A stretch of 24,108 nt of DNA from assembly GCA_937951485.1 (NCBI GenBank), contig CALEDJ010000077.1, positions 1-24,108 of the forward strand. The letters run 5' to 3'. Under the pieces are notes generated by a model. That model was given only the letters and a program-made list of their open reading frames with translations. It made no database searches and was not told where the DNA came from. This DNA comes from an uncultured bacterium. Lineage in GTDB: Bacteria; Hydrogenedentota; Hydrogenedentia; Hydrogenedentales; CAILVY01. The position numbers and the translations under genes were made by a program. Within the stretch, counting starts at the first letter, position 1. Every line of letters begins with the position of its first letter. Of this stretch, positions 141 through 24,108 are shown piece by piece.

Positions 141-429
141 AAACAGAACATCCTGGCACACGAGTCAATGATGCTTCAGGAATCCCACGCAGAGCTTTGC
201 GTATATGAAAGGCCCGCCACATCATCTTGATTCAACAGGATTTTCCAAGGATTTTGTCCATATCCTTTCATTTTCTTGACGGCCTGTTTTAGACCACACT
301 GATCGGGGACATAGTTATCGTTCCGGCAAGTGTGTCGGCGTTTTGCCCACGCTGCCCGCACCACCCCGATGGGTTCAATGCCATGAATACAGTCGTTTCG
401 ATTTGGTACAATACAGGAAACATTTCAGG
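141..429. other. Non-coding stretch upstream of the sigma-54 activator
   Basis: About 290 bases with no convincing gene. Positions 220-277 read like a degenerate CAGGATT-type dispersed repeat and include the small inverted repeat AAGGAT (247-252) / ATCCTT (262-267). A TTGACG near 270 could be a -35 box, but no good -10 box sits at the right distance. The Shine-Dalgarno sequence of the following gene is at 415-420. Confidence 0.4.
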
Positions 430-1809
430 ATGCCTGTTTCGATGCGAAGCACACTCAAAACACGAAAGCCAACCGTCCTGGTCGCCACCAATGACCTGTC
501 CTATGGCGCGACGCTCTCTGAGTTTCTTCGGAGCCAGGGGTGTCGCGTGGAACGCTGTCATGACGCGGCGGGTGTTTTACGTTTGGCGGGTCGTCATCAT
601 TACGAGGTGCTGGTGTTGGATTTGGAACTGAGCATAGAGGGCGACTTGGACCTGGTTTCCTATGCCCGCCAGAAAAGCCCCGAAACACAGGTGGTCCTCC
701 TGTTCGATCCGGCACTTATGGAGAAAGCCCTGGAGGGTATTCGGCAGGGCGCGTTCTTCTATCTTCCCAGGAATAGCGCCCCATCCGATGTGGCGTTGGT
801 GGTGGAGAAAGCCCTGCAACAGCGCACTGCAGAAGCGGCGGCGGCGGACTTCGAGCAGACCCTGTTCGAGGAATTGGCGGGGCAGACCGCTGCGATGCAG
901 CGGGTGCTGGAACTGATTCAGAAGGTGGCGCCCACCGACAGCACGGTGCTGTTGCTCGGAGAAAGCGGGACAGGCAAGGAAGTGCTGGCAAACACCATCC
1001 ATCGTCTGAGCCGTCGCAGGGATCGGCCTTTCGTCGCGATCAACTGCGCAGCGCTGCCGGAGGGGCTGCTCGAAAGCGAACTTTTCGGCCATGTGCGCGG
1101 AGCCTTCACCGGGGCGGAACGCGACAAACGCGGTCTCTTTGAGGAGGCGGACGGCGGCACGATTTTCCTGGATGAAATCGGCGACATGTCGCCCATCACC
1201 CAGGCAAAAGTGCTGCGCGTGCTGCAGAACGGCGAAATCCGACGCGTGGGTTCCGCCGCTTCCCAGCGGGTGGATGTGCGCATCCTGGCCGCCACCAACC
1301 GCGACCTGGTGCAGGCCGTCGCGAACAATGCCTTCCGCGAAGACCTCTATTTCCGGCTGAACGTAATCCAGATTCGCATTCCGCCGCTGCGCGAACGCAT
1401 GGACGCCCTGCCCGCACTCGTCAACCATTTCCTCGCGCGCGCCAACGCGCGCTATGGAAAACAGGTGCGCCGCGTGGATGACCACGCCATGATCCTCCTG
1501 CGGCATTATGACTATCCCGGCAACGTGCGCGAGTTGGAAAGCATCATCGCGCACGCCGTCATTCTCGCCGAGGGCGACACGATCCGCGCCAGGGATTTGC
1601 CGGACCAGGTCCAGTTCGGCCGCGCCCCCCGGCTTGCGCTGCCCTACCGCGCTGAGGACGGCATCCTGACGCTGGCCGCCATGGAGGAAAAGCATATCCG
1701 GGAAGTCCTGGAACGACTGAACGGCAACCAGAGCCTCGCCGCGAAGAAACTGGGTATCTCGCGGTCCACCCTCTGGCGCAAGATGCGCGAGTACGGCATC
1801 GGCAAATAG
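430..1809 (+). CDS. Sigma-54-dependent activator, NtrC family, with degenerate receiver
   Basis: A 459-residue enhancer-binding protein that would use ATP to open sigma-54 RNA polymerase complexes. The order is receiver-like domain (about 14-130), AAA+ domain (about 150-385) and a Fis-type helix-turn-helix at the end (LAAKKLGISRSTLWRKMRE). Walker A is GESGTGKE (177-184), the sigma-54 contact loop is GAFTGA (224-229), and Walker B lies in GGTIFLDEIGD. The receiver keeps an aspartate in the phosphoacceptor position (D64). The usual DD acidic pair reads TN (20-21), the conserved Thr/Ser is F92 and the conserved Lys is R114, so normal phosphorylation is doubtful. The ATG at 430 is chosen because AGGAAA lies 9 bases upstream; ATG 442 is the alternative. 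No kinase gene is adjacent. The family call is firm; the target genes are unknown. Confidence 0.95.
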   Translation: MPVSMRSTLKTRKPTVLVATNDLSYGATLSEFLRSQGCRVERCHDAAGVLRLAGRHHYEVLVLDLELSIEGDLDLVSYARQKSPETQVVLLFDPALMEKALEGIRQGAFFYLPRNSAPSDVALVVEKALQQRTAEAAAADFEQTLFEELAGQTAAMQRVLELIQKVAPTDSTVLLLGESGTGKEVLANTIHRLSRRRDRPFVAINCAALPEGLLESELFGHVRGAFTGAERDKRGLFEEADGGTIFLDEIGDMSPITQAKVLRVLQNGEIRRVGSAASQRVDVRILAATNRDLVQAVANNAFREDLYFRLNVIQIRIPPLRERMDALPALVNHFLARANARYGKQVRRVDDHAMILLRHYDYPGNVRELESIIAHAVILAEGDTIRARDLPDQVQFGRAPRLALPYRAEDGILTLAAMEEKHIREVLERLNGNQSLAAKKLGISRSTLWRKMREYGIGK

Positions 1810-22580: not shown

Positions 22581-23510
22581 TCAGGGCGTCCGCGCTGTGG
22601 TTGTCGGCGCGTTTGCGGCATCCAGATAACGCATGGGATTGACCGCGCGCCCGTCGCGGCGCACCTCAAAATGCAGGTGCGGGCCGGAGGACCGCCCGGA
22701 ATCGCCCACCGTGCCCAGCGGCGTCTGCGCATCCACGAGGTCGCCCGCGCGCACCAGATTCCGGGCGTTGTGCGCATAGAGCGATTCCACGCCATCGGCG
22801 TGGCGCACAATGACGGTGCGGCCATAGCCCCCCCGCCAGCCGCTGAACACCACCGTCCCGGAGGCCATGGGATAAATGAACGCGCCTGCCGGCGCGGCAA
22901 TATCCACGCCGGTGTGGAATGCGGGACGCCGCGTGAAGGGATCGCGGCGCAGTCCATATTCCGAACTGATTGTCGCCGGACCACCCACCAACCGTTTCCA
23001 TGACGCTCCCGTGGCAGTTTCTCCCGGCCCATCCGCGCTTAGAATTTGCCGCACCCTGGCGGCCACGCCGTTCGCCGTCTCCGTCACCGTTTCCAGCCGT
23101 AGCGCCGACAGCGCGATGCCCCCTTGCGCCGGTATCGGGTCGCTCGCACGCAAGGCAGGATAAATCAGGCTGTCCGGTGCGCGAAGCGCGGAGAGGTCCA
23201 ACGACTGCCCCGCGTAGATGCGGTCGGGATTGGAAAGGCCGTTGGCCTGCGCCACCTGCCGCACCACCGCATACACTTTCGCCTGGGTCACATCCCCCCC
23301 CAGCGCCTTGAGTTGATTGCGGACAATCCCCGACAACGTATCGCCCGCCCGCACCTCATAGGCGGGCGTGGCGGGCGCGATGCTTCCCGAAGACCGCATC
23401 GCCTGTTCCAGATGCCCGCGAAATCCGGGCGACAGCATCTCCCGCCGCTGCACCGAGAAAGAGGTGCGCGGCGTGCGAGGCGCGGCTATCCCTTCCACCA
23501 TCCGATACAC
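22581..23510 (-). CDS. LysM-M23 family peptidoglycan peptidase without visible signal peptide
   Basis: A protein of about 309 residues. After a basic, non-hydrophobic N-terminal tail of about 50 residues comes a LysM domain (about 51-107: YEVRAGDTLSGIV to GQSLDLS). A linker follows, then an M23 (LytM/lysostaphin-type) domain at about 180-295. Its zinc and catalytic residues are H199, D203, H247 and the HLH pair H278/H280. Such enzymes cut peptidoglycan cross-bridges or act as hydrolase activators. The start is uncertain: GTG 23510 has GGAG 8 bases upstream; ATG 23501 and TTG 23537 are alternatives. None gives a Sec signal, which is odd for a wall enzyme. A sigma-54-type promoter sits about 25 bases upstream. 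Confidence 0.85.
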   Translation of the reverse strand: MYRMVEGIAAPRTPRTSFSVQRREMLSPGFRGHLEQAMRSSGSIAPATPAYEVRAGDTLSGIVRNQLKALGGDVTQAKVYAVVRQVAQANGLSNPDRIYAGQSLDLSALRAPDSLIYPALRASDPIPAQGGIALSALRLETVTETANGVAARVRQILSADGPGETATGASWKRLVGGPATISSEYGLRRDPFTRRPAFHTGVDIAAPAGAFIYPMASGTVVFSGWRGGYGRTVIVRHADGVESLYAHNARNLVRAGDLVDAQTPLGTVGDSGRSSGPHLHFEVRRDGRAVNPMRYLDAANAPTTTARTP

Positions 23511-23844
23511 TACCCAGGCTCCGTGCTTTACTGTCAATCAATGCCGTGCAATGGTCATGCCATTTTTTCCATAAGCGGCAAATACCGGAAAAACGCGCTC
23601 TTGGACATGACCATCGGACCGCTCCGGCGCAAAGAATATGCAGATATTGCCCATAGAGGCGGCGGAATATGCCGTCCAATCCGATTGCTCCTGTCTTTAT
23701 TGAATTAAGTATTATTTCTGCTTGTTTGATTGCCAGACCTTTTGTATCATGAAGGGGAATCATTGTACGGGAACGATCCGGGCTGTGGGGGCTGCATACA
23801 TCGCGACGCTTCCTGCACCCGACATATTGGTGGGAGTAGTAAAA
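23511..23844. other. Divergent intergenic region with sigma-54 site
   Basis: 334 bases between the LysM-M23 gene and the SGNH hydrolase gene. It contains the sigma-54-type element at 23547-23562 facing the peptidase. An AT-rich stretch at 23690-23730 might hold the SGNH promoter (TTGCTC, 19 bases, TATTAT), but the fit is poor. No gene was recognised inside. Confidence 0.5.
23547..23562 (-). promoter_or_regulatory. Sigma-54 (RpoN) type promoter for the LysM-M23 gene
   Basis: Read on the minus strand the 16 bases are TGGCATGACCATTGCA. This fits the -24/-12 consensus TGGCAYG-N4-TTGCW at every defined position and with the required spacing between GG and GC. Transcription would begin near 23536, about 25 bases ahead of the proposed GTG start at 23510 and upstream of its Shine-Dalgarno sequence. 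No enhancer site for an activator was identified. Confidence 0.75.
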
Positions 23845-24108
23845 ATGCAGAGTTCAAGGCATCAGACCACGTGGATTCTCCGGGCGTTGCTTGTATGGAC
23901 GCTTGTGACAAGCATAGGCGTTACGGCAATTGCCGATACGCCGGTTACCCCCCGAATATTGCTTGTTGGGGACAGTTGGACGGGGTTTTTGCTGGCGTTT
24001 CGGTCGTTCCGGATCGTGATGCCGGAGTATGCGGGGCTGGAGCGGTGGGTGGAGGTGGGCAACCGGACGGCGGTGATGGGGGCGCGGGCCTTTGAGTTGC
24101 ACGACCCG
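23845..24108 (+). CDS. SGNH/GDSL hydrolase, 5' part (cut by window edge)
   Basis: The first 88 codons of an open frame that runs off the right end. A signal peptide (about 1-31: polar start, hydrophobic core, cleavage near AIA) precedes RILLVGDSWTGFL, the block I motif of SGNH hydrolases with the nucleophilic Ser in GDSW. A later GNRTAVMG stretch could contribute to block II. It would be an exported esterase, lipase-like enzyme or carbohydrate deacetylase; the visible part does not tell which. GGGAG lies 8 bases before the ATG, which supports this start. Confidence 0.8.
   Translation, partial: MQSSRHQTTWILRALLVWTLVTSIGVTAIADTPVTPRILLVGDSWTGFLLAFRSFRIVMPEYAGLERWVEVGNRTAVMGARAFELHDP

What the first reader, a model, noticed from the sequence alone, without database searches (positions are those of the whole stretch)
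23490..23565. Textbook sigma-54 promoter in front of a cell-wall peptidase gene
The 16-base element at 23547-23562 (minus) matches the RpoN consensus at each defined base with exact spacing, and it is correctly placed 5' of the LysM-M23 gene. Sigma-54 often drives envelope, flagellar and exopolysaccharide functions, so this hints at condition-dependent wall remodelling. An NtrC-family activator is encoded in the same window, but no link is shown.
Basis: partly seen in the sequence, partly recalled or inferred. Interest (0 to 1): 0.65.

Follow-up and report, generated by a model that had tools for sequence, protein, structure and literature searches.

The report
Sigma-54 promoter of flagellar wall-cutting enzyme
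The promoter is real and conserved, and it shows that an overlooked cell-wall-cutting enzyme belongs with the flagellum genes: the enzyme probably opens the cell wall so that the flagellar rod can pass through, and it is probably shipped out by the flagellum's own export machine.

Summary
TGGCATGACCATTGCA lies at 23562-23547 (minus), is the only exact match in the window and one of five in the 4.55-Mb genome (reversed-pattern control: 0). The genome has rpoN. Other exact sites precede flgB, a PII gene and a pilin gene. A -24/-12 box precedes 36 of 39 readable orthologues across the phylum (2 of 288 control ORFs), usually 35-46 nt before the start codon. The same box precedes flgBC in 28 of 30 genomes.

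The interpretation changes: probably not general wall remodelling. The LysM-M23 gene is in 42 of 48 genomes with flagellar FlhA and in none of 20 without, although never beside flagellar genes. Its products lack a signal peptide but carry M-x-[VI]-x-x-[VI] plus FxxxΦ about 29 residues in, the two-part export signal of early flagellar type III substrates. FlgJ is a single rod-cap domain here, so a separate wall enzyme is expected. Best reading: a sigma-54-controlled flagellar peptidoglycan endopeptidase, probably exported through the flagellar channel. Known stand-alone flagellar enzymes are Sec-exported lytic transglycosylases, so this is a new variant of a known kind. Transcription, export and cleavage are untested.

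The parts
23547..23562 (-). Sigma-54 -24/-12 promoter element TGGCATGACCATTGCA
   Evidence: Exact match; 5 exact matches in the genome, 0 reversed; box conserved upstream of 36 of 39 orthologues with readable upstream DNA
23535..23538 (-). Expected transcription start, about 12 nt after the -12 GC
   Evidence: Inferred from standard sigma-54 geometry; not measured
23519..23522 (-). Shine-Dalgarno-like GGAG, 8 nt before GTG 23510
   Evidence: Sequence
22581..23510 (-). LysM-M23 peptidase gene (309 aa from GTG 23510; alternative start ATG 23501); proposed flagellar peptidoglycan endopeptidase
   Evidence: Pfam LysM 1e-06 and Peptidase_M23 4e-33; invariant H199, D203, H247, H278 and H280; co-occurs with FlhA
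23409..23423 (-). FRGHL, the FxxxPhi motif resembling the gate-recognition motif (residues 27-31 counted from ATG 23501)
   Evidence: Motif in 30 of 36 orthologues, shuffle mean 6.8 and maximum 17 in 2000; background ORFs 36 of 285

Best explanation
The element is a sigma-54 promoter that puts a stand-alone LysM-M23 peptidoglycan endopeptidase into the flagellar rod regulon. RNA polymerase with RpoN, helped by an unidentified enhancer-binding activator, transcribes it in step with flgBC-fliE-fliF and the flgF-flgG operon. The protein has no Sec signal. It carries the two-part N-terminal signal of early flagellar substrates and is probably exported through the flagellar type III gate. Outside the membrane the LysM holds peptidoglycan and the M23 zinc site cuts peptide cross-links so that the rod can pass, the job done by the glucosaminidase half of FlgJ in enterobacteria. 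Shown by computation: promoter conservation, the shared box with rod operons, co-occurrence with flagella, intact catalytic residues, absence of a hydrophobic signal sequence, the FxxxPhi motif and single-domain FlgJ. Inferred: export route, cleavage activity, timing and site of action.
For: Box upstream of 36 of 39 readable orthologues outside the window against 2 of 288 control ORFs. Same box upstream of flgBC in 28 of 30 genomes and at the flgB and flgF operons of this genome, but not at its flagellin genes. Orthologue in 42 of 48 FlhA+ and 0 of 20 FlhA- genomes, Fisher p = 3e-12 without correction for relatedness; in family f10 only genus g19 has both. rpoN is in 60 of 68 genomes, most non-flagellated ones included, so the link is to flagella and not to rpoN. 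FxxxPhi in 30 of 36 orthologues, 29 of them at residues 27-37, and V/I/L/M at residue 3 in 78%; background 36 of 285. Own FliE, FlgB, FlgC, FlgG and FlgJ carry the same motif, and PMC8983047 describes the two-part rule. FlgJ here is 136 aa, rod-binding domain only. M23 domains fused to FlgJ rod-binding domains occur in other bacteria.
Against: No orthologue lies next to flagellar genes. Six FlhA+ genomes have no detected orthologue (G008, G013, G018, G028, G032, G061; several incomplete). G056 and G023 have no good box and G009 has it 411 nt upstream. FxxxPhi is short and frequent (12.6% of background), and most of family f11 lacks it. No enhancer site or activator was identified. Export, activity and transcription are untested. 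The organism is known only from a draft genome.
Confidence: 0.75

Rival explanations
1. A sigma-54 flagellar-regulon wall hydrolase that reaches the periplasm by a non-classical route other than the flagellar gate; the FxxxPhi resemblance is incidental.
For: FxxxPhi is a weak motif (background 12.6%), and most of family f11 lacks it. Known stand-alone flagellar enzymes SltF and BB0259 use Sec.
Against: No orthologue has a hydrophobic signal (maximum 12-residue hydropathy 1.85 against 2.1 or more in Sec-exported controls). Motif position clusters near residue 29, and residues 3 and 6 are hydrophobic as in early flagellar substrates.
Confidence: 0.15
2. A general, stress- or nutrient-responsive wall-remodelling enzyme under sigma-54, unrelated to flagella.
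For: Sigma-54 boxes in this genome also precede pilin, PII, CO dehydrogenase and other genes; the gene is unlinked to flagellar loci.
Against: Absent from all 20 FlhA- genomes although most keep rpoN; no signal peptide; tracks flagella even within families f5, f7 and f10.
Confidence: 0.07
3. A flagellar protein that uses LysM-M23 mainly to bind or anchor in peptidoglycan (rod cap, length control) rather than to cut it.
For: Some M23 proteins, such as EnvC and NlpD, act as activators without cutting (family knowledge). Two family f7 members keep M23 but lack LysM.
Against: All zinc and catalytic residues are invariant in 28 orthologues.
Confidence: 0.05

Closest known systems
FlgJ of beta/gamma-proteobacteria (rod cap plus glucosaminidase)
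   Same: Flagellum-linked peptidoglycan hydrolase, exported by the flagellar type III system; expected to open the wall for the rod
   Different: No rod-binding domain (PF10135) and no glucosaminidase; LysM plus M23 instead; stand-alone gene away from flagellar operons
SltF of Rhodobacter sphaeroides / BB0259 of Borrelia (stand-alone flagellar lytic transglycosylases)
   Same: Separate enzyme serving a single-domain FlgJ; fla1 genes, SltF's flgG operon among them, are sigma-54 dependent in Rhodobacter (PMC7277832)
   Different: Those cut glycan strands (SLT fold) and carry Sec signals; this has an M23 peptidase and no Sec signal
FlgJ-M23 fusion proteins (found here in two deltaproteobacterial genomes and, with a weaker rod-binding match, an Aminicenantes genome)
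   Same: M23 domain serving the flagellar rod
   Different: Fused to the rod cap and inside flagellar clusters; the M23 tree does not make them sisters of this family
Sigma-54 promoters of flagellar rod and hook operons
   Same: -24/-12 box, spacing and class of target
   Different: Target is a wall peptidase that lies outside every flagellar cluster examined

Membership tests
Sigma-54 (-24/-12) promoter | TGGCAYR-N4-TTGCW with exact spacing upstream of a gene | tested here: met
Sigma-54 (-24/-12) promoter | Genome encodes RpoN and AAA+ enhancer-binding activators | tested here: met
Sigma-54 (-24/-12) promoter | Conserved upstream of orthologues | tested here: met
   36 of 39 readable orthologues; controls 2 of 288
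Sigma-54 (-24/-12) promoter | RpoN-dependent transcript starting about 12 nt after the -12 element | not testable with these tools
   No RNA data
Sigma-54 (-24/-12) promoter | Upstream activator site | tested here: inconclusive
   Dyad TGGTCATGTCCA 51 nt upstream in this genome only
Peptidase family M23 | M23 fold with HxxxD and HxH metal and catalytic residues | tested here: met
   Pfam 4e-33; invariant in 28 orthologues
FlgJ | Rod-binding domain PF10135 | tested here: not met
   Absent from P0001; the genome has a separate 136-aa FlgJ
FlgJ | Glucosaminidase (GH73) domain | tested here: not met
SltF-type flagellar lytic transglycosylase | SLT domain and Sec signal | tested here: not met
Early flagellar type III substrate | N-terminal hydrophobic residues plus FxxxPhi gate-recognition motif about 30 residues in, no Sec signal | tested here: met
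   by sequence only, met by most but not all orthologues, and the motif is weak
Early flagellar type III substrate | FlhA/FlhB-dependent export | not testable with these tools
   Needs an export assay
Flagellar regulon member | Occurs with flagella and shares the promoter of rod operons | tested here: met

The most novel reading that the evidence does not exclude
A whole bacterial phylum uses a dedicated stand-alone LysM-M23 endopeptidase, exported through the flagellar type III gate by its own recognition motif and controlled with the rod operons by sigma-54, in place of the FlgJ glucosaminidase or a Sec-exported transglycosylase.
Probability: 0.6. Interest if true: 0.68.

Novelty: new variant of a known kind. 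Interest (0 to 1): 0.6.

Why it matters
How the flagellar rod crosses the cell wall is known for FlgJ glucosaminidase and for a few Sec-exported transglycosylases; many flagellated bacteria have a single-domain FlgJ and no known wall enzyme. This finding names a candidate for one whole phylum, of a different chemistry (peptide cross-links) and probably a different route (through the flagellar channel, which would limit damage to the right spot). It also shows how a promoter box can tie a distant gene to a machine that gene neighbourhood misses.

Tried and rejected
The first start codon (TTG 23537) was rejected because it sits at the expected transcription start. A fixed activator site was looked for and not found: the dyad upstream of the box is not shared by other promoters. 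A link to the NtrC-type gene in the window was rejected as arbitrary. Neighbourhood evidence for a flagellar role failed: no orthologue is near flagellar genes. The tree of M23 domains did not place FlgJ-M23 fusions next to this family, so the fusions are used as analogy only. No curated NCBIfam name applies: all matches fall far below their cut-offs.

Full report
OBSERVATION. The 16-base element TGGCATGACCATTGCA lies at 23562-23547 on the minus strand and matches TGGCAYG-N4-TTGCW exactly; it is the only exact match in the window. In the 4.55-Mb draft genome (77 contigs; the window is contig C77) the exact pattern occurs five times and the reversed control pattern never. A looser pattern gives 20 matches against 12 for its control, so single weak matches are not trustworthy and the rest of the case rests on position and conservation. 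The genome encodes one RpoN and about 16 strong sigma-54 activator domains.

START OF THE GENE. The longest ORF begins at TTG 23537, which is where transcription is expected to start (about 12 nt after the -12 GC, 23538-23535). The usable starts are GTG 23510, with GGAG 8 nt upstream, or ATG 23501, 36 or 45 nt after the box. Orthologues mostly show 35-46 nt.

OTHER TARGETS IN THE GENOME. Sites were read against their downstream genes. The exact or near-exact ones precede flgB (62 nt), a PII (glnB-type) gene, a type IV pilin gene, CO-dehydrogenase genes, a porin-like gene and a polysaccharide glycosyltransferase gene. One precedes the flgF-flgG-flgA-flgH-flgI-flgJ operon. Flagellin genes show no such box. 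FlgB, FlgC and FliE were confirmed above NCBIfam cut-offs; FliF, FlgG, FlgI and FlgJ by Pfam.

CONSERVATION. The protein was searched in 60 relatives and the upstream DNA of its orthologues was scored with a hand-made sigma-54 weight matrix. Outside the window, 36 of 39 orthologues with readable upstream sequence have a box scoring 20 or more out of 23.4, usually 35-46 nt before the start, typically GGCAYR-N4-TTGCT. The exceptions are G056, G023 and G009 (a perfect box, but 411 nt upstream). Controls: 2 of 288 other ORFs in the same loci have a box of that score at the right distance, and 3.6% of random 520-nt windows reach 21. The surrounding intergenic DNA is not visibly similar between species, and the proteins are only 33-45% identical to the window's, so the box is retained by selection. 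The same box precedes flgBC in 28 of 30 genomes.

DISTRIBUTION. All 68 held genomes of the phylum were searched with a profile of the family (alignment A1) and with FlhA. Telling orthologues from other M23 proteins by coverage of the LysM and N-terminal region, by length and by the box, 42 of 48 FlhA-positive genomes have the gene and none of 20 FlhA-negative genomes does (Fisher p = 3e-12, not corrected for relatedness). The pattern repeats within families: in f10 only genus g19 has FlhA and only it has the gene; G024 (f5) and G025 (f7) lack both. G040 counts as FlhA-negative but has FlgC and FlgJ and is only 60% complete. RpoN is present in 60 of 68 genomes, most non-flagellated ones included, so the link is to flagella and not to rpoN.

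THE PROTEIN. It has LysM and Peptidase_M23. H199, D203, H247, H278 and H280 are invariant in 28 orthologues, so the zinc peptidase should be active. The best solved relatives are M23 peptidases (3slu, 6muk, ShyA). No orthologue has a hydrophobic signal sequence: the maximum 12-residue hydropathy in the N-terminal region is 1.85 at most (mean 0.81), against 2.1 or more for Sec-exported controls such as FlgH, FlgI and other M23 proteins. Instead the N-terminus reads M-x-[VI]-x-x-[VI], and F-x-x-x-[LIVMF] occurs in 30 of 36 orthologues, nearly always at residue 27-37 (most often 29); shuffles give 6.8 on average and 17 at most in 2000. Only 36 of 285 background ORFs have the motif there. This is the two-signal layout reported for early flagellar substrates in Salmonella: hydrophobic residues near positions 3-7 and a gate-recognition motif about 30 or more residues from the start (PMC8983047). 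In this genome FliE (FKAVL), FlgB (FQKTL), FlgC (FRRQL), FlgG (FQDLL) and FlgJ (FLYQL) carry the motif. Two members of family f7 lack LysM but keep the box, M23 and the N-terminal style.

WHY A SEPARATE ENZYME IS EXPECTED. FlgJ here is 136 aa with only the rod-binding domain, and short in two other relatives inspected. In bacteria with such a FlgJ a separate enzyme opens the wall: SltF in Rhodobacter (PMC7277832) and BB0259 in Borrelia (PMC8517470), both Sec-exported lytic transglycosylases. In two deltaproteobacterial genomes the FlgJ rod-binding domain is fused to an M23 domain (Pfam-confirmed), and an Aminicenantes protein has the same layout with a weaker rod-binding match below Pfam's threshold. 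This shows that M23 chemistry is used at the rod elsewhere. A tree of M23 domains does not make these the sisters of the present family, so they are an analogy.

MECHANISM AND LIMITS. The best-supported account is a sigma-54-controlled flagellar peptidoglycan endopeptidase transcribed in step with the rod operons and probably exported through the flagellar gate. The promoter is close to certain by computation (about 0.95), the flagellar role very likely (about 0.9) and the type III route likely (about 0.7). Transcription, export and cleavage were not measured. No activator or enhancer site was identified; the FHA-type activator beside a flagellin gene on contig C45 is a lead. The phylum was not named by any tool; from memory of its genome features Hydrogenedentota is possible, unverified.

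LITERATURE. In the held open-access library I found no report of a stand-alone M23 flagellar enzyme or of one exported by the flagellar system. A review of M23 enzymes does not mention flagella. Subscription papers are not held, so prior description cannot be excluded.

Noticed in passing
window 343-1809 (+): NtrC-type response regulator with AAA+ and Fis-type HTH; one of about 16 strong sigma-54 activators in the genome, below cut-off for every named NCBIfam type.
   Followed up: partly
window 23603-23614: Near-perfect palindrome TGGTCATGTCCA 51 nt upstream of the sigma-54 box; part of it (CATGACCA, inverted) recurs in the box itself. Not found at the other promoters examined; possible activator site.
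   Followed up: partly
window 23845-24108 (+): Divergent gene, cut by the contig end, with an N-terminal signal-like stretch followed by a GDSW motif (SGNH-hydrolase-like).
   Followed up: no
L093 9064-10911 (genome contig C45): FHA-domain sigma-54 activator next to a flagellin gene; a candidate flagellar activator.
   Followed up: partly
L072 about 1500 (contig C6): Sigma-54-like box AGGCATAGCGCTTGCA 56 nt upstream of a clpB-like chaperone gene; unusual target, may be chance.
   Followed up: no
L078 and L081 (contig C15): Sigma-54-like boxes upstream of CO-dehydrogenase-type genes.
   Followed up: no
L180 and L181 (genomes G015 and G020): Orthologues that lost the LysM domain but keep the box, the M23 domain and the signal-less N-terminus.
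   Followed up: partly
L091 10921-11379 (contig C28): EF-hand protein directly after flgJ in the rod/ring operon; role unknown.
   Followed up: no
L102, L136, L141: M23 domains fused to FlgJ: rod-binding domain Pfam-confirmed in two deltaproteobacterial genomes (L102, L136); weaker, below Pfam's threshold, in an Aminicenantes genome (L141).
   Followed up: yes
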